Below, in pieces: positions 1,234-58,684 of a DNA stretch of 64,000 bases. The first letter of the stretch is position 1. Every line of letters begins with the position of its first letter. Source of the stretch: Paraburkholderia phenazinium. GTDB lineage: Bacteria > Pseudomonadota > Gammaproteobacteria > Burkholderiales > Burkholderiaceae. The translations under genes and the position numbers were made by a program. The stretch lies in assembly GCF_900141745.1 (NCBI RefSeq), contig NZ_FSRM01000002.1, positions 620,001-684,000 of the forward strand. The letters are read 5' to 3'. Below the pieces are notes generated by a model. The model did no database searches. It was not told where the DNA came from and saw only the letters and a list, made by a program, of their open reading frames with translations.

Positions 1234-1302
1234 CCCGAACGTTCTCACCTTTACGCGTTGATGCATTGGCTTGAGTGCAATCGATTCCCGAAAAGACTCA
1301 CC
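1234..1302 (+). repeat. two copies of the dispersed CCYGRAANNNCTCACC motif
   Basis: Copies at 1234-1249 (CCCGAACGTTCTCACC) and 1287-1302 (CCCGAAAAGACTCACC) lie in the 240-base gap between the small gene at 883-1140 and the EamA gene. They are members of a 17-copy intergenic motif family found throughout the window. Apart from these copies I see nothing in the gap. Confidence 0.75.
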
Positions 1303-1380
1303 TCAACGAGATGAGGGTGCACGGTGCGGCGACTCAAGCCTCACCGTGGATCGCAGAGGAGTCGGCGGGGAAGCGACGGA

Positions 1381-2277
1381 TCAGGTAGCGGCGCGCCGCG
1401 AGAAGAAGCGCCGCGTCAGATCGAACGCTACGAGGTTGCCTGCCACCACGAGTACCAGACCAACGACGGCCAAAACAGTCCAGCGATAGCCTTCGAATAC
1501 GGTAGAGACCGCTAACGCCACGATCGGAAACAGCACGGTGCAATAGGCGGCACGCTCCGGGCCCATGCGTCCCACCAGCATCAGATAGGCCGTAAATCCG
1601 ACCACCGAGCCGAACACGGCCAGATACGCAAGCGCACCGAGATACCGCACATCCGGTTCGACGCTGAACGGCAAGCCCGCCAAAGCGCTGCCCACCGTCA
1701 GGATGCTGGCGCCGATCAGCATGGCCCAGCTGTTGGTGACGAGCGGGTGCAGACCCATCGACTGCATCCGGCTCGACAGCAGGCTGCCAGTGGAAAAACA
1801 CAACGTGCCGAGCAATGCGACGCCCATCCCGAGCCACGCGGTCTGGTCGCCGAGGTGTCCAGCCATCTGCGGCACGAACAGGCACAGGATGCCCACCAGG
1901 CCCAGCAATGCGCCCAGGATAACCGTGGGTTGCAGCGGCCGTCCCATGAACAGCCGGCCGTTGATCGAATTCAGCAGCGGCGCGATCGAGAAGATCACCG
2001 CAACCAGACCGCTCGGCACGACCTGCTCGGCGTAGTAGAAGCACAGAAAGTTGCAGCAGAACAGCGCCAGGCCCTGCGCCGCCAGATATCGCCAGGCGGC
2101 GCGCGGCGGCCAGATCGGCCGGCGCATGATGCGCAGCACTGCGAACAGGATCAGCGCGGCGAGCCCGAAGCGCCAGGCAATCGACACCGGCGGCGGCACC
2201 ACGCCGAGTTGCCATTTGATGGCGATCCAGGTGGTACCCCAGATCAGAACGGTTAAGGCATAAAGAAACAGGTTCAT
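1381..2277 (-). CDS. EamA/DMT-family permease (RhaT-like)
   Basis: A 298-residue inner-membrane protein with about ten hydrophobic segments arranged as two EamA repeats, the usual size and layout of drug/metabolite exporters of the DMT superfamily. The N-terminus MNLFLYALTVLIWGTTWIAIKWQLGVVPP carries the typical first-helix signature (WGxxW). C-terminal basic residues (TRRFFSRRAAT) probably lie in the cytoplasm. It is divergent from the AraC-type regulator starting at 2415, across 137 bases, so that regulator is the obvious candidate controller. The transported substrate cannot be read from the sequence. Confidence 0.88.
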   Translation of the reverse strand: MNLFLYALTVLIWGTTWIAIKWQLGVVPPPVSIAWRFGLAALILFAVLRIMRRPIWPPRAAWRYLAAQGLALFCCNFLCFYYAEQVVPSGLVAVIFSIAPLLNSINGRLFMGRPLQPTVILGALLGLVGILCLFVPQMAGHLGDQTAWLGMGVALLGTLCFSTGSLLSSRMQSMGLHPLVTNSWAMLIGASILTVGSALAGLPFSVEPDVRYLGALAYLAVFGSVVGFTAYLMLVGRMGPERAAYCTVLFPIVALAVSTVFEGYRWTVLAVVGLVLVVAGNLVAFDLTRRFFSRRAAT

Positions 2278-2401
2278 GGCAACGCTTGCGGGATGGAAAT
2301 CGGGGATTCGACCACCCGAGTCTGCGCCTGCGGACCAGCCACTACTTGTCCAGGATTGCGCACTTTTTGGCCGTGCGGAGCGGCGACTGCGCCGTCCGCT
2401 C

Positions 2402-2407
2402 TATACT
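2402..2407 (+). promoter_or_regulatory. possible -10 box of the AraC-type gene
   Basis: TATACT lies only 7 bases before the ATG at 2415, and there is no Shine-Dalgarno sequence in between. If it is the real -10 element, the mRNA would be leaderless or nearly so. I see no convincing -35 box. An imperfect inverted repeat (GAGCGG ... CCGCTC) lies just upstream, around 2378-2401. Confidence 0.3.
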
Positions 2408-2414
2408 GTAAGCC

Positions 2415-3365
2415 ATGCAATCCGCCACTTCTTCAGCCGTGAACACCGCCATCCAGCCCGGCACCGCGATCGACTCCACCGAGACGCCATTTGGCATCCA
2501 GTCGGTGTGTCACACGCTGCGCGACGCCAACGCGACGCTGCAGCGCTTCGCGTGGCTCGGCGATCAATTGGCGGTGGCGGAGTGGACTCGCGAGACGGAG
2601 GAAGCCGAAACCGTCTATGAAAATCCGGGCCATCACACGCTGTCGTGCTATATCGACGGCGGATATCGCACCGAGCGTCAAAAGATGCCAGGGCTGTATG
2701 GCGCGCCGACGCGGCTATGCGCGCTGCCCGGCGACCACGAATCGCGCTGGTGGGTGCGCGGCAAGATGCATTTCATGCATCTGTATTTTTTGCCCGAACA
2801 CTTCACGCAACGCGCCGTGCGGGAGTTGGACCGCGAGCCGCGGGAAGTGACGCTGGCTGACCGCACCTATTTCGAAGACGCGCGCATTGCTACGCTGTGT
2901 CAGTCGTTAACCGAGGAAAGATGGGACGACGCCGATGGTCTGCTAAGGACCAATGAAACAGCGCACGAAGTATTGAGCCTGCTGCTGAAGTCGCAAGGCG
3001 TGAGCCGTACCGATGCGGAGCTCAGAGGCGGTCTCTCGGTGGCGACGCGCCGGCGGCTACGCGACTACATCGACGCGCATCTCAGCCAGCCGCTCACGTT
3101 GGGCGATCTGGCCGATGTGGCCTGTCTGTCGGAATACCACCTGGCGCGTATGTTCCGCACATCGTTCGGTTTGCCGCCGGCTGCGTGGATCGCCCAGCAG
3201 CGTATCGAACGGGCTCGGCTGCTGTTGCGCACCACGGCGTTGCCGCTCGCCCAGATCGCGGCGCGCTGCGGTTATGCGAACGCCAGCCACTTTAGCCACC
3301 GCTTCCGCGAAGCGGTGGGCGTGGCGCCCGTACTGTTCCGCCAGGCGATGAGCACGGCGGCGTAA
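2415..3365 (+). CDS. AraC-family transcriptional regulator
   Basis: A 316-residue protein. The N-terminal 200 residues form an effector-binding region of no clear type. The C-terminal 100 residues (LRDYIDAHLSQPLTLGDLADVACLSEYHLARMFRTSFGLPPAAWIAQQRIERARLLL...IAARCGYANASHFSHRFREAVGVAP) are a standard double helix-turn-helix AraC DNA-binding domain. It is divergent from the EamA permease and may control it. The start codon has no visible ribosome-binding site and sits just after a TATACT box. The gene converges with the FAD/Fe-S dehydrogenase gene. Confidence 0.88.
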   Translation: MQSATSSAVNTAIQPGTAIDSTETPFGIQSVCHTLRDANATLQRFAWLGDQLAVAEWTRETEEAETVYENPGHHTLSCYIDGGYRTERQKMPGLYGAPTRLCALPGDHESRWWVRGKMHFMHLYFLPEHFTQRAVRELDREPREVTLADRTYFEDARIATLCQSLTEERWDDADGLLRTNETAHEVLSLLLKSQGVSRTDAELRGGLSVATRRRLRDYIDAHLSQPLTLGDLADVACLSEYHLARMFRTSFGLPPAAWIAQQRIERARLLLRTTALPLAQIAARCGYANASHFSHRFREAVGVAPVLFRQAMSTAA

Positions 3366-3402
3366 GGTCAGCTGCTGACGCTAACTACGCCAGGCTTATT
3401 GC

Positions 3403-6400
3403 CTACTTCAAGGCCATCGCCAGCACACGCGCCACGTGCACAGCGTCGACGCCGGCGCCGTCGTGAATCTGATGCCGGCAACTGGTGCCGTCGGCCACCA
3501 TCACCGTATCGGCGCCGACCTTGCGCACCGCCGGCAGCAACGACAACTCCGCCATCGCCTGCGAAGTCGCATAGTGCTCAGCTTCATAACCAAAACTGCC
3601 GGCCATCCCGCAGCACGACGACTCGACCGTCGACACCGTCAGCTCCGGAATCCACTTCAGCACGGTTTGCACAGGCGTGAAAGCGTCGAAGGCTTTCTGA
3701 TGGCAATGGCCATGCACGAGGGCCTTTTGTGTCGGCAGCGGTTTGAGGTCGAGCTTCACGCGCCCGGCTTTCTGCTCGCTAACCAGAAACTCTTCGAACA
3801 GGAATGCTGACTTCGACAGCCGTTGCGCTTCCTCACCAAAACCGTAGTGCAGAAACTCATCGCGCAACGACAGCAGACACGATGGCTCAAGTCCGACAAT
3901 CGGCACACCGCGATCGACAAACGGCTTGAATGTATCAAGCATGCGCCGCGCTTCCTGCTTCGCCTCGTCCACGAGGCCTGCGGCGAGGAAGGTACGACCG
4001 CAACACACCGGCCGCTCGCCCTGGCGGGTGTTGAAGTGCACGGTATAGCCAGCAGCCTCCAGCACCTGCTGAGCGGCGCGCGCATTCTCCGGTTCCATGT
4101 TGTTGTTGAACGTATCGACGAACAACAGGACTTCTTTCACTTGCGCATTCGAACCCGCCGGGCGAGCCGCGCGTGTCGAAACGGCTCCTGCCAGGAACGA
4201 CTTGCGAAAACGCGGCAGCGTGCGCTCTGGCGCAAAACCCACCGTGCGCTTGAACCATCCGGACAGCACCGGCACGTTCTCAGCCAACGCCATCAGCCCC
4301 GGCACCTTGCTTGCGAACGGCGCATAGCGCGGCATGAACGCGACCAGCCTGTCGCGCACACTCAGACCATGCCGCTTGACGCGCGCCGCCCGTGCCTCGA
4401 TCTTGAACTTCGCCATATCGACGCCGGTCGGGCAATCGCGTTTGCAGCCCTTGCATGAGACGCACAGGTCGAGCGTTTCCTTGACGTCGTCGCTCGCTAA
4501 TCCTTCTTCACCGAGTTGTCCTGAGATCGCCAGACGCAATGTATTGGCACGGCCGCGCGTCACGTGCTGCTCATCCTTCGTCACGCGATAACTCGGGCAC
4601 ATGGTGCCCGCGTCGAACTTGCGGCAATGGCCGTTGTTGTTGCACATCTCGACGGCCTTGCCGAGGCCGCCAGCGAGATCGTTGCCGGTACCCGGCAGCG
4701 TTTCCTCGCCGGTAAGCGGATCACGATCGACGTTCCACGCGGACCAATCGAGAGCGGTATCCAGCGCCCGTACGCGATAGCCCGGCGCGAAGCGGAAATT
4801 GCGCGCGTCGTCCATCTTCGGCGGACGCACGATCTTGTCCGGATTGAAACGGTTGTCAGGGTCGAAGAGCGTCTTGATCTCGCTGAACGCTTCGTTCAGG
4901 CGCGGGCCGTATTGCCATGCCACCCATTCGCCACGGCACAGCCCATCGCCGTGCTCGCCCGAATACGCGCCTTTGTATTCCTGCACGAGAGCCGCGGCTT
5001 CTTCTGCAATCGCCCGCATCTTGAGCGCGCCGTCCTGCCGCATGTTGAGAATCGGCCGCACGTGCAGCGTACCGACGCTCGCGTGCGCGTACCAGGTGCC
5101 TTCCGTACCGTGACGGTGAAACACTTCGGTGAGCTTGCTGGTGTACTCGGCCAGGTGTTCGAGCGGCACCGCGCAGTCTTCAATGAAAGACACCGGCTTG
5201 CCGTCGCCCTTCATGCTCATCATGATGTTCAAGCCGGCTTTGCGGACTTCCCACAAGGCTTTCTGCTCGTTGGCATCCGGCATCTGCACGACCGAATCGG
5301 GCAAGCCGAGATCGGCCATCAGCTCGGTCAGTTGCTTGAGACCGGCCAGCTGCTCGTCGCGATTTTCGCCGGCGAATTCCACCAGCAGGATCGCCTCGGG
5401 ACGACCCACCAGAGCCTTCTCTATCACCGGACGGAAGGCCGGGTTGCTGATCGCCAGATCGATCATCGTGCGGTCGACCAGTTCTACCGCCACCGGCTTC
5501 AGCTTGACGATGTGCTGCGTCAGATCCATCGCCTGCCAGAAGGTCGGGAAGTTGACCACGCCGAGCGCCTTGTGCGCGGGCAACGGCGAGAGCTTCAGCG
5601 TCAACTGCCGGCTGAACGCGAGCGTCCCCTCAGAGCCGACCAGCAGATGCGCGAGGTTGGCAATGCCATCATCGGTATAGGCGCGTGGATTCTGGCAGTC
5701 GAACACGTCGATGTTGTAACCGGCGACACGCCGCAACACCTTCGGCACGCGAGCCACGATCTCGTCGCGTTCGCGCGTCGCGATGCGCTTCACGCCTTCG
5801 ACGATCTCCTGCAAGCGCGCCCCTTGCGGTGCGTCTCTCAGCGACCCGAAGCGCGCTTCGCTGCCGTCGGCAAGGATCGCTTCAATGGCCTCGACGTTGT
5901 GCACCATGTTGCCGTATTCGATCGAGCGCGAGCCACACGAGTTGTTACCCGCCATCCCGCCGATCGTGCATTGCGCCGCCGTCGAAACGTCAACTGGAAA
6001 CCACAATCCATGCGGCTTGAGCCAGGCGTTCAGATGATCGAGCACGACTCCTGGCTCGACCGTGACCGTGCGTGCCTCCGCATCGAACGAGACGACGTTG
6101 TTCAGCCACTTGCTGGTGTCGATCACCAGCGCCTCGCCGACCGTCTGCCCACATTGGCTCGTGCCGGCGCCGCGCGCGAGCAGCGGCACCTTTTCGCTGC
6201 GTGCCACTTCGAGCGCGATGCGCAGGTCGTCCTGATCGCGCGGCACGACGACGCCGATCGGCGTGATCTGATAGATCGACGCATCCGTCGAGTAGCGGCC
6301 ACGGCTGGCGGAGTCGAACAGCACATCGCCGCGCAAGGCTTCGCGCAATCGCCTGGCGAGCGGCGTTGTCATCCGGGAACTCGACGGCACCAGATGAATG

Positions 6401-6435
6401 GGTTTGACGAGTAAGGGGGAAGCGGCATTCGTCAT
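3403..6435 (-). CDS. FAD/Fe-S 2-hydroxyacid dehydrogenase, YdiJ-like fusion
   Basis: A 1010-residue fusion of an FAD-binding oxidase and an iron-sulfur reductase, close in length to E. coli YdiJ (a D-2-hydroxyglutarate dehydrogenase). The N-terminal part has the PCMH-type FAD site (LLARGAGTSQCGQTVG, then GGMAGNNSCGSRSIEYG), followed by the FAD-oxidase C-terminal domain. Around residues 640-680 comes a ferredoxin-like segment with CVSCKGCKRDCP, and the C-terminus has CCG motifs (PVCCGRTF and ESSCCGMAGSFGYE). It probably passes electrons from a D-2-hydroxy acid to the respiratory chain. It is the last gene of a four-gene minus-strand operon, 20 bases after the hydratase gene. The exact substrate is unknown; D-lactate is an alternative. 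Confidence 0.88.
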   Translation of the reverse strand: MTNAASPLLVKPIHLVPSSSRMTTPLARRLREALRGDVLFDSASRGRYSTDASIYQITPIGVVVPRDQDDLRIALEVARSEKVPLLARGAGTSQCGQTVGEALVIDTSKWLNNVVSFDAEARTVTVEPGVVLDHLNAWLKPHGLWFPVDVSTAAQCTIGGMAGNNSCGSRSIEYGNMVHNVEAIEAILADGSEARFGSLRDAPQGARLQEIVEGVKRIATRERDEIVARVPKVLRRVAGYNIDVFDCQNPRAYTDDGIANLAHLLVGSEGTLAFSRQLTLKLSPLPAHKALGVVNFPTFWQAMDLTQHIVKLKPVAVELVDRTMIDLAISNPAFRPVIEKALVGRPEAILLVEFAGENRDEQLAGLKQLTELMADLGLPDSVVQMPDANEQKALWEVRKAGLNIMMSMKGDGKPVSFIEDCAVPLEHLAEYTSKLTEVFHRHGTEGTWYAHASVGTLHVRPILNMRQDGALKMRAIAEEAAALVQEYKGAYSGEHGDGLCRGEWVAWQYGPRLNEAFSEIKTLFDPDNRFNPDKIVRPPKMDDARNFRFAPGYRVRALDTALDWSAWNVDRDPLTGEETLPGTGNDLAGGLGKAVEMCNNNGHCRKFDAGTMCPSYRVTKDEQHVTRGRANTLRLAISGQLGEEGLASDDVKETLDLCVSCKGCKRDCPTGVDMAKFKIEARAARVKRHGLSVRDRLVAFMPRYAPFASKVPGLMALAENVPVLSGWFKRTVGFAPERTLPRFRKSFLAGAVSTRAARPAGSNAQVKEVLLFVDTFNNNMEPENARAAQQVLEAAGYTVHFNTRQGERPVCCGRTFLAAGLVDEAKQEARRMLDTFKPFVDRGVPIVGLEPSCLLSLRDEFLHYGFGEEAQRLSKSAFLFEEFLVSEQKAGRVKLDLKPLPTQKALVHGHCHQKAFDAFTPVQTVLKWIPELTVSTVESSCCGMAGSFGYEAEHYATSQAMAELSLLPAVRKVGADTVMVADGTSCRHQIHDGAGVDAVHVARVLAMALK

Positions 6436-6455
6436 AGCGTCAGCCTGAAAAAACT

Positions 6456-7220
6456 TTAGAACAGCGTCACACTGATTGGAGCAAGCCCTTCAATGCGACC
6501 GCTTGCCGTGCCTGCGCTCTGCGGGAAAAACATCCCCGTGTACGAGCCGGCCGTAATCACCATCTCCGGAGTGACAGCAATGCCCCGAACCACTGCACAG
6601 TGATTCACGAGCCACGTAAGCAGCCGGCGCGGGTCGCCGGCCGGATTTTTGGCGGCCTCGACCACCACGTTGCGCCCCTCGAAGCTGAACCGTAGCGACG
6701 GTGCGACAAACGGAAAGTCTTCCCGATACGGCACGAACTCGCCGACCACCAACGCGCCGTTGTTCTGCAAATCGGCGAGTTGAGCGAGCTTGTCGACGTT
6801 CGGCCATGCGGCGTAGCGGCTTGCGACGATTTCTATCGTTGTACCGAACGATCCGATACCCGCCAGCACTTCGGCTTCGCTATAAGGCTCCTGCGCCGGT
6901 TCGAAACGGCGGCCGAAACGGAACGCGATTTCCAGCTCGAGTGCGAGCGGCGTGAAGGCGTCGCGCGGCAGCCTGGCGCCGTCTTCGTAGACGTCGGCTG
7001 CGGGCAGCGGCGCACCCTGGATCGGTCCTGTTTCGGACTTCGAACCGATCTTCCAGCCGCCGATCTCCGAGCCCGACAAGCGCAGGATCTCGTGCTGGAT
7101 CGCATAGGCAGCGCCGAAATCGGCCGGTATCTGTTCCGGCGGCAGGCTGTCGAGCGTCTGATGACGTGCTCGCGCTTCGGCGAGGCGCTGGCTCAAGAGG
7201 GAGGTATCGGTAAAGTTCAT
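6456..7220 (-). CDS. 2-keto-4-pentenoate hydratase/FAH-family protein
   Basis: A 254-residue protein starting at the ATG of MNFTDTSLLSQRLAEARARHQ; an in-frame upstream extension has no family resemblance. GGWKIGSKS, ALELEIAFRFGRRF and the C-terminal ITAGSYTGMFFP match the MhpD-type hydratase/decarboxylase family, metal-dependent enzymes acting on 2-keto acids. Its place between the MFS permease and the FAD/Fe-S dehydrogenase points to 2-keto or 2-hydroxy acid catabolism. The acidic metal ligands are plausibly in the LELEIAF segment. Substrate not determined. Confidence 0.8.
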   Translation of the reverse strand: MNFTDTSLLSQRLAEARARHQTLDSLPPEQIPADFGAAYAIQHEILRLSGSEIGGWKIGSKSETGPIQGAPLPAADVYEDGARLPRDAFTPLALELEIAFRFGRRFEPAQEPYSEAEVLAGIGSFGTTIEIVASRYAAWPNVDKLAQLADLQNNGALVVGEFVPYREDFPFVAPSLRFSFEGRNVVVEAAKNPAGDPRRLLTWLVNHCAVVRGIAVTPEMVITAGSYTGMFFPQSAGTASGRIEGLAPISVTLF

Positions 7221-7278
7221 CTTGATTCTTGATGAGTGATTGGTTGGAAATTGCGTGACGCGAGAGCCTGTCACAGAC

Positions 7279-8565: not shown

Positions 8566-8745
8566 CGTCTGTCTCCGTTGCTGCGATCGACGGCGTGCCT
8601 GAAACGGCGCGCTGCGTCGTTATTTCCCTGGCGTGCGCTGCGTGGCCGTAGCGCCTTGTGGACCGCTACGGCCGCTAAGACCGTTTACTGCAAGGGGAAG
8701 ACTCCTCCTCTTCCCCCTTTACTCTTTACCCGTGATGCAGACAGC

Positions 8746-9966: not shown

Positions 9967-9984
9967 GGGTCTTCTCCGATTGAA

Positions 9985-9998
9985 TTTTGCATGCAAAA
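9985..9998. promoter_or_regulatory. GntR operator 1: perfect palindrome
   Basis: TTTTGCATGCAAAA is a perfect 14-bp palindrome located 19 bases upstream of the aminotransferase start codon. A near-identical site lies at the start of the divergent GntR gene, 136 bp away centre to centre. The pair suggests co-repression of the operon and autoregulation, possibly by looping. Confidence 0.65.
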
Positions 9999-10090
9999 AA
10001 CTATATCAGACGATCGATGACTAACCCAAGGCAAACGTGGGTTGCTGACACCAGTGTTTACCCGCTATCTTACCTAAAGGGCCGGCTTCC

Positions 10091-10098
10091 TATAAAAT
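10091..10098 (+). promoter_or_regulatory. candidate -10 box of the GntR gene
   Basis: TATAAAAT lies 28 bases before the GntR start codon and upstream of operator 2, so a repressor bound at 10121-10134 would block the transcript just after initiation. No clear -35 element is visible. Confidence 0.4.
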
Positions 10099-10120
10099 CG
10101 CCTCCAATGATAGTGAGGGT

Positions 10121-10852: not shown

Positions 10853-10872
10853 GGCAAATCTGGGGCGACGGC

Positions 10873-13638: not shown

Positions 13639-13665
13639 CACTTGCACCGCCTGCGGCGTCCGGCT

Positions 13666-13796
13666 CCCGAATATCCTCACCATTTCGGCTGCCGGTCCGC
13701 GGGCTCGCATCTCAAGCAGTGCGTCTCCGTCAGGCGATTTCTTCACCTTAAGTCACGACATCTCGCGACGCCGTCGCGCTCCCGAAAGTACTCACC
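13666..13796 (+). repeat. two copies of the dispersed motif
   Basis: Copies at 13666-13681 (CCCGAATATCCTCACC) and 13781-13796 (CCCGAAAGTACTCACC) lie in the 356-base gap between the SDR and the IlvD/Edd gene. A weaker relative (TTCTTCACCTTAAG) lies near 13737-13750. I see no gene in the gap. Confidence 0.75.
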
Positions 13797-13994
13797 TTTG
13801 ACCTGGCGTCGTCGTTTCGCACCGGGCGTTCTCGCGTGACACGACGTGTCAAGGTCGAGCGAGGCAGCTTCAGATATGGGGACACCCGCACTTTGATTGA
13901 CGAACCTCCGGGCCGCTCCTAAAGTTCATTGCAAACAGCGCAGCAAGCGTCGCGTTGCAAAGAGCTTGATTGAAGCGCATCAAAGGAGACACCT

Positions 13995-16663: not shown

Positions 16664-16776
16664 GTGACGGTTGGCCGGGCCGGTTCATGGCGCGCGGCGT
16701 GCAGCGTGCGGTGATCCATGAAAACCAACTGCGTCGCACAGCGCTCGAGCGTTGGCGGCATCGCTCAAACCACGCT

Positions 16777-16792
16777 CCCGAAAAGACTCACC
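16777..16792 (+). repeat. dispersed motif copy
   Basis: CCCGAAAAGACTCACC lies between the DapA-family gene and the convergent RHH-type gene. Confidence 0.75.
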
Positions 16793-16825
16793 TTTCGCCA
16801 GCAGCGCATTGCGACGGAGACTAAA

Positions 16826-17618: not shown

Positions 17619-17847
17619 CAGGAAAATCCTCACCGAAGATCGTCGAAAGGTGAAGGCGACACGAGCTTAAAGCCGCACCTCTTCGTTGCGAGCCTTGGCT
17701 CCCGAAAAACCTCACCTTCGGGCGCAGCTGCAATTAATCTGCATTCCCAGGTAGGCCTTTAAACAGCAATTGAGATGTCAACGGGTTAAACTCGCGACAT
17801 GTTTAACGTCGCTGTGCTTTCTGCGGCAGCCCCCGAATATCCTCACC
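17619..17847 (+). repeat. three copies of the dispersed motif
   Basis: Copies at 17619-17634 (CAGGAAAATCCTCACC, two mismatches), 17701-17716 (CCCGAAAAACCTCACC) and 17832-17847 (CCCGAATATCCTCACC) lie in the 676-base gap between the RHH-type gene and the OmpA-family gene. I see no other feature in that gap. Confidence 0.7.
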
Positions 17848-18980: not shown

Positions 18981-19280
18981 GCTTTTCTCCTTCGTGAGGT
19001 ATTGCGAGCACGGATACCGTCGCTTCAGAATCCGTGAAATGCAATGCCCAGAACATATCAACCGACGAAGGATCGCGTTTGAGAACGTAGTTACAAAACC
19101 GTACAGAAGTTTGTCGCCAGCGTACGCGGGTATTCGCTGAATCACCCTTGTTTACACACGCTTTAGCAAGACATGAGACATCGTTTGCGCAATCCGATGC
19201 TTCTACTTCCTGTTGCTCTAAGTAAGCCGATGTAAGCGCTTGAGTTCGTCTCGAGCAACAACACGCGCTGTTCGGGATCT

Positions 19281-19345
19281 CCTGGAACTCCTCACCTTAT
19301 AAGCAGCAACTCCTGGAAGTCCTCACCATCCCGAATCCTCTCACC
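19281..19345 (+). repeat. three-copy array of the dispersed motif
   Basis: Copies at 19281-19296 (CCTGGAACTCCTCACC), 19312-19327 (CCTGGAAGTCCTCACC) and 19330-19345 (CCCGAATCCTCTCACC) have start-to-start spacings of 31 and 18 bases. A matching array with spacings 30 and 18 lies at 58621-58684 on the other strand. The rest of the gap 18981-19628 shows nothing recognisable. Confidence 0.78.
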
Positions 19346-19628
19346 TTAACCAATACATTGACCAGCGAGCGACCAACGTACGACGCCTTCCACCCGCAAC
19401 GTACTTCCCGTTTGCACAGAGTCGAACGAGCGTAAAGTCCCGCCACAAATAAAACGGCTCTCACGCCACACCTCGTCGTCTGGCGCTACACCAATCCCCG
19501 CTCATGCAATAAACTTCGGACTTGAGCGAATGCGCCGGACATCGCGGATCCGCCCCTTTCGCAAACGTAATTTGCGTCGGGAAGACCACCGCGTAGCCGG
19601 CCGTCTATTAGAGAGTCGAAGAAGCAGG

Positions 19629-49628: not shown

Positions 49629-49705
49629 GCGGCGTACTCCGGTCAATTCAAGTCAGATCAGGTTCTGGACATTCGGCAGCGGACCCAGGCAAGGTGCGGA
49701 GCCGT

Positions 49706-52700: not shown

Positions 52701-52936
52701 TCGATATCGCCGACGTCCGAGGTCAGCGCGCGTTCGTACGGCGCGACGATGCGGTGCGCCATATCCTCAGACGTCAACCCGCTGTAGCTCCACACGACGC
52801 TGATCACGGGGATGTCAATGTTCGGAAAAATATCGACGGGCGTACGCAGGATCATCAGTGGTCCGATGATCACGAGCAGCAGCGCCAGCACAATAAACGT
52901 GTACGGGCGGCGGAGAGCGATTTTGACGATCCACAT
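49706..52936 (-). CDS. RND efflux permease, HAE/AcrB-like
   Basis: A 1076-residue inner-membrane pump starting at MWIVKIALRRPYTFIVLALLLVIIG; upstream in-frame codons lack family resemblance. The helix-4 motif GGLALAVGILVDDATVAIENM has the proton-relay Asp pair, and a second copy is in ALTGAMMCIGVATANSILVVSFA, where the acidic pair is replaced, as is usual in half two. Two large periplasmic loops are present. Divergent from a heavy-metal-type two-component system, so it is probably its target. Substrate class, drugs or metal-related compounds, is unproven. Confidence 0.92.
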   Translation of the reverse strand: MWIVKIALRRPYTFIVLALLLVIIGPLMILRTPVDIFPNIDIPVISVVWSYSGLTSEDMAHRIVAPYERALTSDVGDIEHIESQSLNGVAVVKVFFHPGADITRAETEASVSAQSLLKVMPPGTLPPMVLTFNASTVPIMELALSSKTLPEQTLYDLGNNFIRTQLATVQGAAVPIPYGGKVRQIMVDIDPQAMQSHHVTPTDVVNAVNAQNLVLPGGTAKIGTFEYNVNMNGAALSVAQLNNIPIRTQPDGTVTYVHDVATVRDGYAPQTNIVRHDGKRAALLEVEKSGSVSTLDIIANIKSLLPRIRSQMPKALDIQTVTDESVFVKSAVQGVIREGLIAAGLTAVMILLFLGSWRATLIIAISIPLAMISSLIMLSVLGQTINIMTLGGLALAVGILVDDATVAIENMTHHIEQGQPLLQAILEGSGEIAVPTLISTLSICIVFVPMLLLSGVARYLFTPLAEAVVFAMLASYFLSRTLVPTLAMYLLRGAHQPGDEGTQHGRPANRLVRFQQSFERRFEALRGRYERLLEAALAAPRRFIAGFLMVCIGSLALLPFLGRDFFPQIDSGQIRLHMRAKTGTRIEQTARLADEIENSIRTVIPANELMTIVDNIGLPTSGINLSYSSSAPIGSADADILITLNAKHKPTAQYVAKLRQSLGEQFPAVTFSFLPADMVSQILNFGLPAPIDIQVVGNNLDDNRAFADTLLNKLRNVKGLVDLRIQQPDDEPAINVDVDRTKALQAGLQQQDVARSLLIALSGSSQTSPNFWLNPQNGVSYPVTTEVPQYDINSLQALANIPLSSMFTPGTGGSGSNAGEVNGILGTLGTFSRATQQAVVTHYNVQPVIDIYGSVQGRDLGGVASDVTRIVDAAKANLPRGARVVIRGQVQTMESSFSGLATGIAFAVLLVYLLMVINFQSWIDPLVIVCGLPGAMAGIVWMLFLTHTTLSVPALTGAMMCIGVATANSILVVSFARERLAQGMAPLQAALAAGAGRFRPVLMTALAMMIGMVPMALGMGDGGEQNAPLGRAVIGGLMIGTIATLMFLPVVFSLVHGWLAKREPRGMTQAELDLLK

Positions 52937-53009
52937 GAGAAGACGACGCCTGAAGGGGAGCAATAGACGCAGTCTAGGGAGCAGGGTTTTGCGTCGGGAT
53001 TGCGCCTGG

Positions 53010-53027
53010 ATGACAAACTCGTAATGA
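53010..53027. promoter_or_regulatory. CopR/CusR-like response-regulator box
   Basis: ATGACAAACTCGTAATGA lies in the 181-base divergent region between the efflux operon and its two-component system. It matches the ATGACnnnnnnGTAAT layout of heavy-metal response-regulator sites (imperfect inverted repeat). A near copy is at 55622-55637. Confidence 0.45.
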
Positions 53028-53117
53028 ACTTCGGGCCGCCGCGCGGGTATCATCGAAACCATCCGCTGGGCGCAACCTGGCGGCAAACCGCGAGCAACCC
53101 GATGGAAGGCGACTGCG

Positions 53118-53792
53118 ATGAGAGTCCTCGTAATCGAAGACGAACCGAAGGCCGGCGACTACCTCAAGAAGGGCCTGGAGGAGTCGGGCTTTGTGGTGGA
53201 CGTGGCACGTAACGGTGTCGACGGCCTGCATCTCGCGCTGGAAGAGTCTCATGACGTGATCGTGCTCGATGTGATGTTGCCGGGCATGGACGGCTGGCAG
53301 GTGCTGCAGCAATTGCGCGGCCGCAAGGACACGCCGGTTCTGTTTCTGACGGCGCGCGACGAGATCGAAGACCGCGTGCGTGGCCTTGAGCTAGGCGCCG
53401 ACGACTATCTGATCAAACCGTTCGCCTTCGTCGAGCTGCTCGCACGGGTACGCACGCTGGCACGGCGTGGCCAGGCTCGCGAGAGCGACACGCTGACGAT
53501 CGGCGACCTCGAGATCAACGCGAGCCAGCGCAAGGTACGACGTGCGGGCCAGCGCATCGACCTGACGCCGCGCGAGTTTGCGTTGCTGCATCTGCTTGCG
53601 CGGCGCAGCGGCGAAGTATTAAGCCGCACGCAAATCGCTTCATATGTGTGGGACATGAACTTCGATAGCGACACGAATGTTGTCGATGTGGCGATCCGCC
53701 GCCTGCGTTCGAAGATCGACGATGACTATCCGGTCAAGCTGGTGCATACCGTGCGCGGCGTCGGTTACGTGCTCGAAGTGAAGGACGCATGA
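53118..53792 (+). CDS. OmpR-type response regulator, heavy-metal (CopR/CusR) subgroup
   Basis: A 224-residue regulator. Receiver: [22 protein letters not shown], phospho-acceptor Asp51 in [17 protein letters not shown], Lys in LIKPFAF. C-terminal winged helix: [77 protein letters not shown]. The subgroup is shown by the [15 protein letters not shown] start. ATGA overlap with the kinase. Confidence 0.93.
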
Positions 53793-55180
53793 TGCAACGG
53801 CTCTCGTTGACTGCGAGGCTGGCTGCCTGGTTTGCGCTGATCACCGTGCTGGTCTTCGGCGTCGGCGGTGGTGTGCTGTATCAGGCGCTAGCAAAGCAGA
53901 TTCGCGCCCAGGACGACTTCGACCTGGTGCTGACGGCCCGGCATCTGCGGCGCCTTGCAGCCGAGCTGGATTCACCGCAGGGCATCAAACTGCATGAGTC
54001 CCGGCTCGATAGCCTGGTGCTCGGCAATCAGGCTTTCTTCCTCAGAATGCAGGACTCGAGTGGTCGCGTCCTGCTCGAACGTAATCCCTCGCACTTTGCG
54101 ATTGACGATCTGAAGGAAGTGAAACCGTTGAACCGGATTCTCGAGCATGACGTGCAGGAATGGCATACCCCCGATGGCCTGACGATGCGCGGCGTTGCCA
54201 CGGATATCGCGCTGGCCGACGGTTCGGTGGTCGATGCGGTGGTTGGACGCGAAATGAGCGATCGCGAAGCGTTACTTGCCCGCTACCGCAACACGGTATA
54301 CCTGACGACGCTGTGCGCGCTCCTTGCCGCGGTCGTGCTCGGTTACGTCGCGGTGCGCAACGCGTTGCGCCCGCTGCGCGACATCGCTGGCAGCGCTACC
54401 CACGTGACGGTGGGCAAACTCCATACGCGCCTGCCCTCCGGCAATGTGCCGCGCGAACTCGCGGCGCTGATCGACGCGCTGAATTCGATGCTCGCACGCC
54501 TCGAACTCGGCTTCCAGCGACTCTCGCAGTTCACGGCCGACCTCGCGCACGATCTGCGCACGCCGCTCGGCAACATGCGCGGTGCGAGCGAAGTAGCGCT
54601 TGCGCGCCCGCGCTCGACCGACGAATATCAGGCGTTGCTGGTATCGAATATCGAGGAATGCGAACGACTATCGCGAATGGTCGAAAACGTGCTGTTTCTC
54701 GCTCGCGCCGACAATCCGCAGTACGTGACGACGGCCGTGGATTTTCCGGTGCGCGACGAGCTGCTGCGAGTGGCCGACTATTTCGAAGGCATAGCGGAAG
54801 ATGCCGGCATTTCGATTCAGGTGACGGCGAGCGGCCAGTTGCATGCCGATGTCGATCTGTTTCGCCGCGCCGTCAGCAATCTGCTGGCGAACGCACTGCG
54901 TTACACGCCGCGCGGCGATACTTTAACGCTTTCGACAAGGGAGACCCCGGAGGGGATGATGGTCACGGTCGCCAATCCCGGCACACCGATTCCTTCGGAA
55001 CATCTTGGACGGCTGTTCGACCGCTTCTACCGCGTCGACGGATCGCGCAGCAATTCATCCGGCTCAACCGGACTAGGACTTGCAATCGTGCGGACCATCA
55101 TGGAACTGCACGGCGGCAGTGCCACTGTCGAAAGCGACGTGGCGGCCACGCAGTTCCATTTGCACTTCCCGCGGCAGTGA
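53789..55180 (+). CDS. heavy-metal-type sensor histidine kinase
   Basis: A 463-residue membrane kinase: helix 1 ([24 protein letters not shown]), a periplasmic sensor of about 150 residues, helix 2 ([22 protein letters not shown]), HAMP, then [18 protein letters not shown] with the phospho-acceptor His. The ATP site has [13 protein letters not shown] and [19 protein letters not shown]. No obvious Cys/His metal cluster in the sensor. Pairs with the preceding regulator. Confidence 0.92.
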
Positions 55181-55203
55181 GTGAGCGTTGCGCGCATTCT
55201 GGG

Positions 55204-55500
55204 TCAGTTAACTGCCATGTTGACGCGATTATCCAGATGACGGGCCTGATATTCGGCGCGATTTTGCGCGATCTCATGCGGCGTCGGCGGATAGTTGGTC
55301 TTCGACACGGGAATCGTCCCTTGCTGTTCGGCCTGGATCAGCTCCGCGCGGACCTCGGCGCGCGTCTTGCCAGTGTTGACTGAGGCCGCCGGTGGGGTCG
55401 TGGCGCCGGTGGCATACGTACTCTGCGCGAACGCTGATTGACCGAAAGGGATCAGCGACACAACGACTGCGGCAAGTGCGGCATATCGGGTAAGTTTCAT
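55204..55500 (-). CDS. small exported DUF4148-like protein
   Basis: A 98-residue periplasmic protein with signal peptide MKLTRYAALAAVVVSLIPFGQSAFA, and AGGAG upstream. The mature part TGKTRAEVRAELIQAEQQGTIPVSKTNYPPTPHEIAQNRAEYQAR is the DUF4148 signature common in Burkholderiales. It is convergent with the sensor kinase gene. A copy of the heavy-metal-type box lies about 120 bases upstream, so it may belong to the same regulon. Molecular role unknown. Confidence 0.85.
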   Translation of the reverse strand: MKLTRYAALAAVVVSLIPFGQSAFAQSTYATGATTPPAASVNTGKTRAEVRAELIQAEQQGTIPVSKTNYPPTPHEIAQNRAEYQARHLDNRVNMAVN

Positions 55501-55619
55501 GGAAGGCTCCTGAGGTGGGTTGTGCCGGATCGCGCTTGTATCGCTCCCGGCCCGTTTCACGTAGCAGCGAGGCTACGAACCCATTCTCGGGCGCCGCGGT
55601 TTGCGCCGAGGTGACGCGT

Positions 55620-56981
55620 TCATGACGGATTTGTAATTTCGCGCTCAGCCACGCGCATAAATCCGCTCACCGAAACTGTCAGGCCTCCGACCCCAACGTT
55701 GTTACGCAATGAGAGGGTCAGCTGTTGCCGTTGCGCAATGCGGGCGGCAATGGCGAGTCCCAGTCCGCTGCCCGTGCCCTTGGCATGCTCGCCGCGATAG
55801 AAGCGGTCAAGCACCCGCCCCAGGTCCTGCTCCGGAATGCCGGGGCCGTTGTCCACCACTTCAAGGCCGAGGCGCTCTGACGTGCGCGTGAGCACAACGT
55901 CGACCTTGCCCCCTTGAGGCGTGTAGCGGATGGCATTGTCGATCAGGTTATTCAGCAGTACACCCAACGCGTGCGGGTCAGTTAGCACGTTGCACGCATC
56001 CTCGCGCGTGACCGGTTGCCGGAACTCGAGGCCCAGGTCAATCTGCTTTTCGTCGGCGAGCAGCGAGAAATCGCTGACCGCCTGTTCTCCAAGTCTGCGC
56101 AAACTGACGGATGCGCCAACGCTGGTAGACTGCGCGTCCTCGCGTGCGAGCGTCAGCAATTGCTGCACGAGCCGGATCATACGATTGAGTCGCCTATCGA
56201 TTCGCTCGAGCGTCTGGCCATCGTCCTTCAACGTGCCGTTGTTCGAAGCGGCCTGCAACTGCAGTTTCAGCGCAGCAAGCGGGGAGCGAAGCTCGTGGGC
56301 TGCATCGGCGATAAACGCGCGCCGCGCCTCCGCCGCAACGTTCAGGCGGAGTAGCAAGTCGTTCAATGCCTCGACTAGCGGCCGGACTTCCACGGGTACC
56401 CTGCCGTCGAGGCGCAGCGGTTCGAGTGAATCCAGCGAACGCGTTGCGAGAAGACGCGACAGTCCGCCGATTGGCGCAAGGCCCCACGCGACGACGAACA
56501 GCACCAACAGGATCGTCACGGGCACGAACACGCCCAGCGGCCACAACGTGTGCAGCGCAAGTTGCAATGCCAGCGCTTCCCGAACAGAGACCGGTTGCGC
56601 GACCTGGATGAAGCGATCGGCCTGTTGCAACCCGAATACGCGCCATTGACCTTCGCTGCGGTCGATGGTGCGAATACCGGCCGGCAGACGCGTCAGGACA
56701 GCCGACTCTCGCGAGTGATAGACAAGCCTACCGTCCTTGTCCCATATCTCGATGAGAATACGGTCGTCCGAAATGCCTGCGGCCTCTTCGCCTTCCCTCT
56801 CGACCGTCTCCGCCGTTTCAACATTCGCGGGCAGCGACAACGCGACGGTACGCAGTTCATAGTCGAACAGTTCGCCGGCCTCGTCGCGGGCCGTATGAAA
56901 GATCGCCAATGCGGCAATCCCGGAAGCAGTGGCGAGACCGCAGATGAGCCAGCCGAGCAGCCAACGGCGGATCGACTTCAT
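55620..56981 (-). CDS. QseC/PmrB-type sensor histidine kinase
   Basis: A 453-residue kinase starting at MKSIRRWLLGWLICGLATASGIAALAIF. It has a short periplasmic loop between two helices, then HAMP and AFIADAAHELRSPLAALKLQLQ with the phospho-His. The ATP site has LLNNLIDNAIRYTPQGG and GTGSGLGLAIAARIAQRQ. The start overlaps the regulator's stop (ATGA). The second helix region LWPLGVFVPVTILLVLFVVAWGLAPIGGL is typical for this subgroup. Confidence 0.9.
   Translation of the reverse strand: MKSIRRWLLGWLICGLATASGIAALAIFHTARDEAGELFDYELRTVALSLPANVETAETVEREGEEAAGISDDRILIEIWDKDGRLVYHSRESAVLTRLPAGIRTIDRSEGQWRVFGLQQADRFIQVAQPVSVREALALQLALHTLWPLGVFVPVTILLVLFVVAWGLAPIGGLSRLLATRSLDSLEPLRLDGRVPVEVRPLVEALNDLLLRLNVAAEARRAFIADAAHELRSPLAALKLQLQAASNNGTLKDDGQTLERIDRRLNRMIRLVQQLLTLAREDAQSTSVGASVSLRRLGEQAVSDFSLLADEKQIDLGLEFRQPVTREDACNVLTDPHALGVLLNNLIDNAIRYTPQGGKVDVVLTRTSERLGLEVVDNGPGIPEQDLGRVLDRFYRGEHAKGTGSGLGLAIAARIAQRQQLTLSLRNNVGVGGLTVSVSGFMRVAEREITNPS
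55622..55637. promoter_or_regulatory. second CopR/CusR-like box
   Basis: ATGACGGATTTGTAAT shares 12 of 16 positions with the site at 53010 (ATGACnnAnTnGTAAT). It overlaps the end of the sensor kinase gene and lies about 120 bases upstream of the DUF4148-like start codon. Confidence 0.35.
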
Positions 56982-57640
56982 CCGAGCCTCTTCAGCCGAT
57001 AGCCGACGCCGCGCACCGTCACGACCTGCTCTGTGCCAATCTTGCGCCGCAGGCTGTGCACGTGGACTTCGATCGTGTTGCTGCCCACTTCGTCGCCCCA
57101 TCCATAGAGCTTGTCCTCGAGTTCCGCTCTGGTAAAGACGCGTGCTGGCTCTTCGATCAGCGCCTGCAGCAAGCCGAATTCGCGCGGCACCAGCGTCACT
57201 GGAACACCGCTTTTCCTCACTTCATGAGCGGCGGGGTCGAGGGTTAGATCACCGTGTGCATAGATCGGTTGCTTCTGTCCGGTGCGCCGGCGCAGCAACG
57301 CGCGTGCTCGCGCTGCCAGTTCGTCAAGATCGAAAGGCTTGATCAGGTAGTCGTCTGCGCCTGCGTCCAGACCGCGAATCCGGTCGGTCACCGCGTCGCG
57401 CGCGGTCAGGATGATGACGGGCGCTTCACCGCCTTGTCTGCGATAGCTGCTGAGTAAATCGATGCCGTTTTTCCCGGGCAAACCGAGGTCCAGCAGGACG
57501 AGGTCATATACGTCGTTACCTAGCGATAGCTCGGCGGCCCGTCCGTCCTGTGCCCAGTCGATTGCATAGCCCTCGCGCCGCATCGATTCGAGCACGGTCT
57601 CCGCAATCATTTCGTCGTCTTCCACCAGAAGCAGACGCAT
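56978..57640 (-). CDS. OmpR-type response regulator, QseB/PmrA subgroup
   Basis: A 220-residue regulator with Asp51 in LVLLDLGLPGKNGIDLL and Lys in YLIKPFDLDELAARARALLRR. The winged helix is LTLDPAAHEVRKSGVPVTLVPREFGLLQALIEEPARVFTRAELEDKLYGWGDEVGSNTIEVHVHSLRRKIG. The subgroup is known to bind CTTAAG-type direct repeats, and such a phased box lies just upstream at 57687-57725, suggesting autoregulation and control of the divergent membrane-protein gene. Confidence 0.92.
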   Translation of the reverse strand: MRLLLVEDDEMIAETVLESMRREGYAIDWAQDGRAAELSLGNDVYDLVLLDLGLPGKNGIDLLSSYRRQGGEAPVIILTARDAVTDRIRGLDAGADDYLIKPFDLDELAARARALLRRRTGQKQPIYAHGDLTLDPAAHEVRKSGVPVTLVPREFGLLQALIEEPARVFTRAELEDKLYGWGDEVGSNTIEVHVHSLRRKIGTEQVVTVRGVGYRLKRLG

Positions 57641-57686
57641 CGCGCCCCCTGCGTTGTCATCCCGGTGTCATTGTCGCGCATCTGGC

Positions 57687-57725
57687 CTTAGGTCTGCCTT
57701 AAGCCTTCGTTAAGCGTTCGTTCAA
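57687..57725. promoter_or_regulatory. four phased CTTAAG-like half-sites
   Basis: CTTAGG (57687), CTTAAG (57698), GTTAAG (57709) and GTTCAA (57720) start exactly 11 bases apart, so they fall on one face of the helix. This is a PmrA/QseB-type box, extended. It lies 31-69 bases before the ATG of the divergent membrane-protein gene and 47-85 bases before the regulator gene. Confidence 0.6.
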
Positions 57726-57755
57726 TATCATCCACGTTCAACGGAGGAATGCGCG

Positions 57756-58544
57756 ATGAAACCGGACGCTGTGAGTTTTGCGAGGCACGCTGTCAGCAAG
57801 GTTCCCGAAGTGACTTTGGGCTTCTGGGTGATCAAGGTCGCGGCCACCACGCTGGGAGAAACCGGCGGCGACTGGGTGTCGATGTCCCTGAATCTTGGCT
57901 ACCTGATCGGCTCGGCAATCTTCCTCGTCCTGTTCATTGGCCTCGTTTGTGCGCAGGTAAAGGCGCAGGAATTTCGTCGCTTCCTGTACTGGGCGACCAT
58001 CGTCGCTACGACGACGCTCGGCACGACCATGGCGGACTTCGCCGATCGATCGCTCGGGGTCGGCTATCCAGGGGGCACCACAATCGTCGTGATATTGCTG
58101 ATTGCCAGCCTGGCGATATGGTATCGATCGGAGGGAACAGTCTCGGTCGAGAGCATCGTTACGGGCAAGGCGGAGTGGTTTTACTGGATCACGATCCTGT
58201 TCTCGCAGACCCTCGGAACGGCGCTTGGGGACTGGGTAGCGGGTGAGGACCGCGGTGGTCTCGGTATCGGATACGAATACGGAGCCATGCTCTTCGGCGC
58301 GGGACTGGTCATCGTGATGGGCTTATATTGCTGGACGCGTGTGTCCCGGACCGCGCTCTTCTGGGCCGCGTTTATCTTGACACGGCCGCTAGGCGCAACG
58401 TTGGGGGACTTCCTCGATAAGCCTGTAGCGGAGGGTGGCCTTCACATTAGCCGGCTTTACGCGTCCGGGATTCTGCTGGCTTTTATCGTGGTGTGTATTG
58501 CGTTGACACCGCAGCGCTCGGCGAGGCGGAGTACGGCGGTGTAG
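57756..58544 (+). CDS. membrane protein with four TLGxTxGD repeats (COG4705-like)
   Basis: A 262-residue inner-membrane protein of about eight helices. A four-fold internal repeat is visible: TTLGETGGDW, TTLGTTMADFAD, TLGTALGDWVAG and PLGATLGDFLD. Each ends a helix with an acidic residue that could bind a cation. Proteins of this family (COG4705) are uncharacterised. It is divergent from a QseB/PmrA-type system with a phased box in between, so it is a likely target of that system. Confidence 0.8.
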   Translation: MKPDAVSFARHAVSKVPEVTLGFWVIKVAATTLGETGGDWVSMSLNLGYLIGSAIFLVLFIGLVCAQVKAQEFRRFLYWATIVATTTLGTTMADFADRSLGVGYPGGTTIVVILLIASLAIWYRSEGTVSVESIVTGKAEWFYWITILFSQTLGTALGDWVAGEDRGGLGIGYEYGAMLFGAGLVIVMGLYCWTRVSRTALFWAAFILTRPLGATLGDFLDKPVAEGGLHISRLYASGILLAFIVVCIALTPQRSARRSTAV

Positions 58545-58620
58545 GCATTCGTTCTGCTCAACCACACACTTGCTCGCAATCTCCTTTGCTGTGGACCGGA
58601 CGCTCACAGCGAGATTTCAA

Positions 58621-58684
58621 GGTGAGGACTTACAGGATGGTGAGGAGTTCCAGGAGATAGCAGGGAGTGGTGAGGTTATACGGG
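58621..58684 (-). repeat. three-copy array of the dispersed motif, minus strand
   Basis: Copies at 58669-58684, 58639-58654 and 58621-58636 (minus-strand readings CCCGTATAACCTCACC, CCTGGAACTCCTCACC, CCTGTAAGTCCTCACC). In the motif's own direction the spacings are 30 and 18 bases, almost the 31 and 18 of the array at 19281. It lies just after the four-repeat membrane-protein gene. Confidence 0.75.

What the first reader, a model, noticed from the sequence alone, without database searches (positions are those of the whole stretch)
1234..58684. A 17-copy intergenic 16-mer, CCYGRAANNNCTCACC, on both strands
Seen directly: copies begin at 1234, 1287, 11628, 11710(-), 11784, 13666, 13781, 16777, 17619, 17701, 17832, 19281, 19312, 19330, 58621(-), 58639(-) and 58669(-). 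The fixed CTCACC sits at exactly the same distance from CCYGRAA in all copies; the three central bases vary. Every copy lies outside intact genes, and none falls within the long APE, hpn or RND operons. I do not know this as a REP, ERIC or uptake-sequence family. It could be a protein-binding site, a small mobile element or a structural end-of-transcript signal.
Basis: seen in the sequence. Interest (0 to 1): 0.78.

Follow-up and report, generated by a model that had tools for sequence, protein, structure and literature searches.

The report
Remote binding sites of replication initiator
The repeated motif is the presumed docking site of the protein that starts copying of this bacterium's second chromosome, but the copies here lie about 190-250 kb from that start point, and several are kept at the same genes across related species, so they probably help limit copying to once per cell cycle.

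Summary
The repeat is real and far above chance. It is neither a genome-wide repeat nor a mobile element. It is the iteron of the replicon on which the window lies: the motif forms an array directly upstream of that replicon's Rep_3-type initiator gene, beside parAB (C2:871.1-874.1 kb). It matches the iteron consensus printed for Burkholderia cenocepacia chromosome 2 (PMC4948915); a table legend there mentions a second cluster 140 kb from the origin.

In seven chromids compared, including this one, origins hold 15-18 sites and the other stretches examined 14-32. Some sites are anchored to particular genes across the genus: behind an H-NS gene in 50 of 51 orthologues examined, against 0 of 20 H-NS paralogues; behind the window's SDR gene in 43 of 52.

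Best explanation: remote iterons bind, titrate and perhaps handcuff the initiator, as shown for RctB sites in Vibrio cholerae. Binding and inhibition are inferred, not tested. Motif pairs also stand near the third-replicon origin in 9 of 11 Burkholderia records examined.

The parts
1233..1251 (+). extra-origin iteron
   Evidence: 25.1 bits
1286..1304 (+). extra-origin iteron
   Evidence: 27.2 bits
11627..11645 (+). extra-origin iteron, inside a marginal ORF call
   Evidence: 32.0 bits
11708..11726 (-). extra-origin iteron
   Evidence: 28.8 bits
11783..11801 (+). extra-origin iteron, CCTGGAA type
   Evidence: 22.4 bits
13665..13683 (+). extra-origin iteron, 3' of the SDR gene
   Evidence: 28.5 bits; conserved behind this gene
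13780..13798 (+). extra-origin iteron, 3' of the SDR gene
   Evidence: 27.7 bits; conserved behind this gene
16776..16794 (+). extra-origin iteron
   Evidence: 30.4 bits
   Evidence: 10.3 bits, two mismatches
17700..17718 (+). extra-origin iteron
   Evidence: 31.3 bits
17831..17849 (+). extra-origin iteron
   Evidence: 22.3 bits
19280..19298 (+). extra-origin iteron, CCTGGAA type
   Evidence: 24.1 bits
19311..19329 (+). extra-origin iteron, CCTGGAA type, 18 bp before the next
   Evidence: 19.4 bits
19329..19347 (+). extra-origin iteron
   Evidence: 25.7 bits
58619..58637 (-). extra-origin iteron, 18 bp from the next
   Evidence: 22.1 bits
58637..58655 (-). extra-origin iteron, CCTGGAA type
   Evidence: 20.9 bits
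58667..58685 (-). extra-origin iteron
   Evidence: 23.2 bits
12883..13638 (+). SDR-family gene, anchor of the conserved sites at 13665 and 13780
   Evidence: adh_short E 9.5e-26

Best explanation
The motif is the iteron of the second chromosome (chromid): the presumed binding site, about 19 bp, TCCYGNAAnnnCTCACCTT, of its Rep_3-family initiator. At the origin (C2:871.1-872.7 kb, directly upstream of rep) an array of iterons serves initiation. The copies in the window are extra-origin iterons, kept by selection between genes, often in pairs or triplets, within 7% of the replicon's length from the origin. Most likely they are negative regulators of initiation: duplicated early after the origin fires, they bind free Rep, and possibly tether it to the origin (handcuffing), so that the plasmid-derived origin does not fire again in the same cycle. 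Shown by sequence: identity with the origin iteron, restriction to the Rep replicon in this genome, clustering around the origin in relatives, intergenic placement, conservation at orthologous positions, conservation of the sites but not of their surroundings. Inferred: Rep binding, titration or handcuffing, effect on timing.
For: Array of the motif directly upstream of a Rep3_N/Rep3_C gene beside parAB; the Rep profile's only PDB hit at E <= 0.1 is the pi initiator 2nra (E 0.0045). The published c2 iteron ctCCCGAAAAacCTCACCTtt is the same motif (PMC4948915, legend passage). A matrix from relatives' origins scores 16 window sites 19-32 bits; in 20 Markov controls of the 316-kb stretch the mean is 0.95 hits at >=14 bits (largest 3), observed 49. 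Copy number follows the Rep orthologue: of 60 family genomes, the 22 with Rep >=78% identical have 3-39 exact copies (19 of them 15-39), 4 with Rep 38-40% identical have 3-9, the other 34 have 0-4. A Rep 34% identical has a different repeat upstream of it. Sites within 700 bp 3' of the H-NS gene in 50 of 51 orthologues examined, 0 of 20 paralogues. Footprint there in 5 close relatives: 37 of 38 columns invariant inside the sites, 113 of 462 outside. Non-origin exact copies on the chromid within 300 kb of rep: 16/18, 10/15, 15/15, 15/15, 15/16 in five genomes. Titration by extra-origin RctB sites is experimental in V. cholerae (PMC3937223, passages).
Against: No binding or replication data for this Rep; the passages of Du et al. 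that I saw report no binding test. Number and position of extra-origin sites vary between species (14-32) and some pairs lie far away (785 kb from rep in G011; at least 1.6 Mb in G067). In the own genome extra-origin sites are not stronger than origin sites (mean 24.2 against 26.4 bits, P 0.16). Exact copies also occur on other contigs of relatives (LB400: 3 on C1, 1 on C3; G067: 4 on C1; G001: 1 on C1, 4 on C4; G065: 1 on C2). One of 51 H-NS and 9 of 52 SDR orthologues lack a site within 700 bp; in G060 the pair is about 1.5 kb beyond the H-NS gene. In V. cholerae, deleting the strongest extra-origin site alone gave no growth phenotype.
Confidence: 0.68

Rival explanations
1. Remote iterons are structural: Rep bound at them bridges distant DNA to the origin, or they help segregation of the origin domain; any effect on initiation is secondary.
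For: Sites cluster around the origin and keep their gene neighbourhood; an H-NS-type gene stands beside the most constant pair.
Against: Nothing here distinguishes bridging from titration; the anchor gene may only mark a stable place. ParB is expected to have its own parS sites (recalled), which were not mapped.
Confidence: 0.13
2. Rep, or another protein, acts at these sites as a regulator of transcription or RNA 3' ends of the neighbouring genes.
For: Sites 11-41 bp 3' of the SDR stop in 38 of 50 loci, always on the gene's strand there; strand also constant behind the H-NS gene.
Against: No hairpin in two folded examples; genes on the far side of the H-NS pair differ between genomes; the same motif forms the origin array.
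Confidence: 0.09
3. Remote iterons are relics of origin DNA spread by rearrangement and not under selection.
For: Numbers and many positions differ between species; a 221-bp tandem duplication multiplied some copies at C2:859.8-860.5 kb.
Against: Sites conserved where flanks are not (37 of 38 against 113 of 462 columns); constant placement in 50 of 51 H-NS loci examined.
Confidence: 0.05
4. A different protein of the origin region (for instance the KfrA-like protein, C2:869543-870748) is the binder, and the array upstream of rep is its site.
For: The KfrA-like gene lies within 2 kb of the array, with a conserved pair of sites just 3' of it.
Against: Array beside a Rep_3 gene is the standard iteron layout (recalled) and Du et al. 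call the repeats iterons; motif changes along with Rep.
Confidence: 0.05

Closest known systems
Chromosome-2 iterons of Burkholderia cenocepacia J2315 (Du et al. 2016, PMC4948915; passages and legends seen)
   Same: Same motif, plasmid-type rep with iterons; a second c2 cluster 140 kb from the origin is mentioned in the S1 Table legend.
   Different: In the passages I saw, remote copies are only mentioned. Here they are mapped, shown to be gene-anchored across Paraburkholderia, and equal or outnumber the origin's in 6 of 7 chromids compared.
Extra-origin RctB sites of Vibrio cholerae chromosome 2 (PMC3937223, passages; review PMC6090056, passages)
   Different: The V. cholerae iteron is different (TGATCA core, methylation-dependent). 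Binding and inhibition are experimental there, inferred here. Here there are more sites, spread wider.
datA and dispersed DnaA boxes of E. coli (as described in PMC3937223)
   Same: Initiator sites near but outside the origin that act against premature initiation.
   Different: Different initiator; datA promotes DnaA-ATP hydrolysis.
Iteron plasmids with Rep_3 initiators, such as R6K pi and F RepE (recalled; pi is the PDB hit)
   Same: Iterons beside rep, Rep_3 initiator, control by titration and handcuffing expected.
   Different: Plasmid iterons lie at the origin (recalled); here many are dispersed over the replicon.

Membership tests
Rep_3 origin iterons | Several direct repeats of about 17-22 bp beside a Rep_3 initiator gene | tested here: met
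   Rep3_N and Rep3_C domains; median 17 sites within 2.4 kb upstream of rep in 80 named loci; one locus, L117, has none
Rep_3 origin iterons | Match to the published iteron of this replicon type | tested here: met
   ctCCCGAAAAacCTCACCTtt, B. cenocepacia c2
Rep_3 origin iterons | Repeat changes when the initiator changes | tested here: met
   Rep about 40% identical keeps the core (L183, L186); Rep 34% identical has ACCATnnnnnTKCACCT; few lineages
Rep_3 origin iterons | Direct binding by Rep | not testable with these tools
   The structure model was too poor to use (mean pLDDT 47.5)
Extra-origin initiator titration sites | Origin-type sites elsewhere on the same replicon, near the origin | tested here: met
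   exceptions listed in the Against line
Extra-origin initiator titration sites | Sites kept by selection | tested here: met
Extra-origin initiator titration sites | Sites bind the initiator in vivo and inhibit the origin in trans | not testable with these tools
   needs ChIP and a copy-number assay
REP, ERIC or MITE dispersed repeat | Dispersed over the genome, with inverted-repeat structure | tested here: not met
   No exact copy on the other contig; two 22-mers fold to 0 and -0.4 kcal/mol
Intrinsic terminator | GC-rich hairpin followed by a T run | tested here: not met
   two representative 22-mers only
crtS-like trigger on chromosome 1 | Conserved initiator site on the main chromosome | tested here: inconclusive
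   0-4 exact copies on contig C1 in six genomes including the own; synteny of these was not tested, and a crtS need not resemble an iteron

The most novel reading that the evidence does not exclude
The dispersed iterons are a wired control network of the chromosome-2 initiator: gene-anchored brake sites on chromosome 2; a remote-only subclass (CCTGG type, often 18-bp tandems, 28 remote against 1 origin site) that acts as a different kind of site, as the 39-mer does in V. cholerae; and in Burkholderia a conserved pair of chromosome-2-type sites 1.6-1.8 kb upstream of the chromosome-3 rep (9 of 11 records), through which the chromosome-2 initiator sets or senses replication of the third replicon.
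Probability: 0.2. Interest if true: 0.82.

Novelty: new variant of a known kind. Interest (0 to 1): 0.6.

Why it matters
Du et al. report that chromosome 2 of B. [quoted passage not shown] Conserved extra-origin iterons are a concrete candidate for that regulation and can be deleted, moved and counted. With V. cholerae this would be a second lineage in which a plasmid-derived chromosome carries initiator sites outside its origin, suggesting a general step in turning a plasmid into a chromosome. It also explains an otherwise puzzling intergenic repeat.

Tried and rejected
Rfam on the window: no match at the gathering thresholds. Paper search for the hexamer with Burkholderia: 13 listed, none relevant by title. 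Genome-wide repeat: rejected. Mobile element, REP and terminator readings: rejected as given above. AlphaFold of Rep from 13 close orthologues: mean pLDDT 47.5, so no fold search was made. Chromosome-1 matches as a crtS candidate: five single weak-to-fair sites looked at, nothing pursued. I expected the B. cenocepacia remote cluster at 270-300 kb of NZ_CP091013 and found nothing there nor at 225-270 kb; it is at 343.7-347.2 kb, 204-208 kb from rep, again just 3' of the H-NS gene. The c3-like plasmid of Paraburkholderia sp. D15, the second Rep contig of G070 and both B. multivorans c3 records lack the chromosome-2-type pair. An alignment of seven c3 loci that included B. multivorans L315 gave 10 of 38 invariant columns in the sites against 14 of 462 outside; with a row that lacks the sites it is no fair footprint and I do not use it.

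Rows not examined: 25 of 76 H-NS orthologues (loci taken for the 30 best, the 20 lowest and G011) and 25 of 77 SDR matches (30 best, 20 lowest, G011, G001). In G001 the pair is 0.8-1.0 kb behind the SDR gene, outside my 700-bp limit, and is counted as a miss. One genome, G100, has no H-NS match above 55% identity. The 20 lowest SDR matches are 60-65% identical (one partial match 75%) and may include genes at other places. Gene calls are from my own simple caller, not a standard annotation. Extra-origin counts for relatives cover only the stretches fetched.
Full report
WHAT WAS CHECKED. CCYGRAANNNCTCACC occurs 10 times exactly and 5 times with one mismatch in the window; 100 dinucleotide shuffles give a mean of 0.25 and at most 2. 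Two listed copies, 17619 and 58669, have two mismatches. The 8.3-Mb genome has 32 exact copies, all on contig C2 (3.84 Mb) and none on C1 (4.48 Mb); the pattern read backwards gives 1. Twenty-seven of the 32 lie at C2:600.7-678.7 and 859.8-872.7 kb. The window is C2:620001-684000.

WHERE THE MOTIF COMES FROM. The densest group lies at C2:871.1-872.7 kb, on one strand. It ends about 90 bp before an ORF of 461 aa (C2:872752-874137) with Rep3_N (E 1.4e-11) and Rep3_C (E 4.8e-10); beside it are ParB, ParA and a KfrA-like gene. A profile of the protein finds one PDB sequence at E <= 0.1, the pi initiator 2nra (E 0.0045). This is the layout of a plasmid-type, iteron-controlled origin. The orthologue on P. 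xenovorans LB400 chromosome 2 is 97% identical. Du et al. 2016 (PMC4948915; passages seen) give the c2 iteron of B. cenocepacia as ctCCCGAAAAacCTCACCTtt, which is this motif. [quoted passage not shown] The supplementary files were not open to me.

INDEPENDENT MATRIX. From 80 named loci I took only the DNA up to 2.3 kb upstream of rep; 79 of 80 have 6-13 exact matches there. A 23-column matrix trained on about 1,300 distinct sites from these stretches was applied to C2:580001-896000. It finds 49 sites at 14 bits or more, where 20 first-order Markov sequences of the same length give a mean of 0.95 and at most 3; 48 reach 16 bits. Sixteen of these are in the window, 19.4-32.0 bits of a possible 33.1, 194-252 kb from rep. 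Forty-five of the 48 are intergenic by a simple gene caller that marks 81.7% of the DNA as coding. Sixteen of the 48 lie in the origin array, 32 outside it.

RELATIVES. The own genome has 39 exact CCYGNAANNNCTCACC and 12 same-genus genomes have 20-45; 8 genomes of other families of the order have 0-2. In 60 genomes of the family, the 22 with a Rep at least 78% identical have 3-39 copies: 19 have 15-39, and three Vallotia-type genomes of 1.2 Mb have 3-7. Four genomes with a Rep 38-40% identical have 3-9 and the other 34 have 0-4. Where the Rep is about 40% identical the core motif is kept (L183, L186); where it is 34% identical (G034) the repeats near rep are different, ACCATnnnnnTKCACCT. Motif and initiator thus change together, on few lineages. 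On the second contig of the three Vallotia-type genomes, copies with up to one mismatch lie only at the rep-proximal array; named Vallotia records of this replicon are 61-72 kb long.

EXTRA-ORIGIN SITES ARE THE RULE AND LIE NEAR THE ORIGIN. In the own chromid and six relatives, origin arrays hold 15-18 sites of 16 bits or more and the other stretches fetched hold 14-32, equal or more than the array in 6 of 7. Medians of the extra-origin scores are higher than at the origin in 5 of 7 and lower in 2, the own genome among them; the difference is clear in G060 (P 0.0003), marginal in G001 (0.049), and at P 0.05-0.55 in the other five. On five chromids 16/18, 10/15, 15/15, 15/15 and 15/16 non-origin exact copies are within 300 kb of rep (binomial P 2e-5 or smaller); copies inside genes were not removed, and copies on other contigs of these genomes (LB400 4, G067 4, G001 5, G065 1, G060 0) are not in these counts. 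In G091, whose copies lie on one 6.7-Mb contig, 24 of 29 exact copies are still within about 140 kb of each other around an array at 781.8-783.4 kb (rep was not located there). At least two sites stand 2.4-5.5 kb upstream of rep in 72 of 79 named loci, most often 24 bp apart. The rep-par side has 13 sites in 851 kb, the other side beyond the array 160 in 600 kb.

POSITIONAL CONSERVATION. Own anchor genes are in the same order as in LB400, but between own 633.6 and 861.9 kb (228 kb) LB400 has only 10.9 kb. The pair at own 600731/601093 lies 3' of an H-NS-type gene (Histone_HNS, E 1e-14). The orthologue (at least 70% identical) was found in 76 of 77 genus genomes. Of 51 examined (30 best, 20 lowest, G011), 50 have one or more sites within 700 bp 3', on the gene's strand, and 47 have two. 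Behind H-NS paralogues (55-61% identical, on another contig in 19 of 20) none of 20 has a site in 1.5 kb. In five close relatives 37 of 38 columns are invariant inside the two sites and 113 of 462 outside. LB400 has the pair too; in G060 it is about 1.5 kb beyond the gene. In G065, a genome with both c2- and c3-type Rep, and in a named B. cenocepacia the gene has three sites and, about 3 kb on, an array of 8 and 9 sites spaced in multiples of 23 bp, about 150 and 207 kb from rep. This is probably the kind of second cluster that Du et al. mention. The window's sites at 13665 and 13780 lie 3' of an SDR gene. Of 52 orthologues examined, 43 have a site within 700 bp: 30 of the 30 best, 12 of the 20 lowest, and G011; G001 has a pair farther off. 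In G011 the gene with its pair is 785 kb from rep.

HOW IT PROBABLY WORKS. Initiator sites outside but near a Rep_3 origin are best understood as brakes. In V. [quoted passage not shown] review PMC6090056, passages). The anatomy here is the same in kind, with more sites. (1) Rep binds iterons: inferred from family and layout. (2) Rep binds remote iterons: inferred from sequence. (3) Their early duplication withdraws Rep or bridges it to the origin: inferred by analogy. (4) One firing per cycle results: inferred; it would account for the well-phased c2 segregation that Du et al. report (abstract).

A SECOND KIND OF SITE, AND A LINK TO CHROMOSOME 3. The CCTGG variant is almost confined to remote places (28 of 185 remote, 1 of 117 origin sites) and 18-bp spacing occurs 8 times remotely, never in origins. 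Many of these are at one locus about 11-13 kb from rep in own, LB400 and G006, so they are not independent events. In Burkholderia with a third replicon, a pair of chromosome-2-type sites 32-34 bp apart stands 1.6-1.8 kb upstream of the c3 rep, beyond the bulk of the c3-type repeats, in 4 of 4 unnamed and 5 of 7 named records; both B. multivorans lack it. What binds there is unknown.

KNOWN OR NEW. The motif as c2 iteron is in print, and a second cluster is mentioned in a legend. Six paper searches (titles and abstract starts seen, passages of three papers opened) listed no study of remote iterons in Burkholderia or Paraburkholderia; most subscription journals are not held. I rate it a new variant of a known kind: a gene-anchored, genus-wide set of extra-origin initiator sites.

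Noticed in passing
L256:10242-10298, L257:9508-9563, L259:6029-6084, L308:3905-3960; also L311-L314 and L317: A pair of chromosome-2-type iterons 32-34 bp apart, 1.6-1.8 kb upstream of the chromosome-3 rep in 9 of 11 Burkholderia c3 records examined; absent in both B. multivorans records.
   Followed up: partly
G000:C2:859778-860470 (L036:1778-2470); window 19280-19347 and 58619-58685: CCTGG-type iterons with 18-bp spacing, found almost only outside origins; at 860 kb partly multiplied by a 221-bp tandem duplication.
   Followed up: partly
L163 (G065:C3:1487255-1487530), L267:6707-6960, L323 (NZ_CP091013:346894-347169): A second, origin-like array of 8-10 iterons at multiples of about 23 bp, roughly 150-210 kb from the origin in Burkholderia-type chromids; in G065 and NZ_CP091013 an H-NS gene with three sites is about 3 kb away.
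   Followed up: partly
own C2:633.6-861.9 kb, including most of the window right of 13.7 kb: 228 kb where LB400 has 10.9 kb between the same anchor genes; few iterons in it. It looks like a large lineage-specific insertion or rearrangement.
   Followed up: no
G091:C1:766209-901319: In this genome the array, the remote iterons and the H-NS gene lie on a single 6.7-Mb contig, which may be a fused chromosome; the sites still cluster around the array.
   Followed up: partly
L117 (P. phenoliruptrix LMG 22037, contig 43): A second rep, 92% identical to the query, in the same strain as L100, with no recognisable iterons within 2.3 kb upstream.
   Followed up: no
G034:C3:1139291-1140068 and 1160354-1160472: A diverged Rep (34%) has a different repeat, ACCATnnnnnTKCACCT, upstream of it, with an inverted pair of it 20 kb away, so extra-origin sites may exist in that genus too.
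   Followed up: no
G001:C4:187247, 188652, 233527, 233546: Four exact chromosome-2-type iterons on another contig of a Paraburkholderia relative.
   Followed up: no
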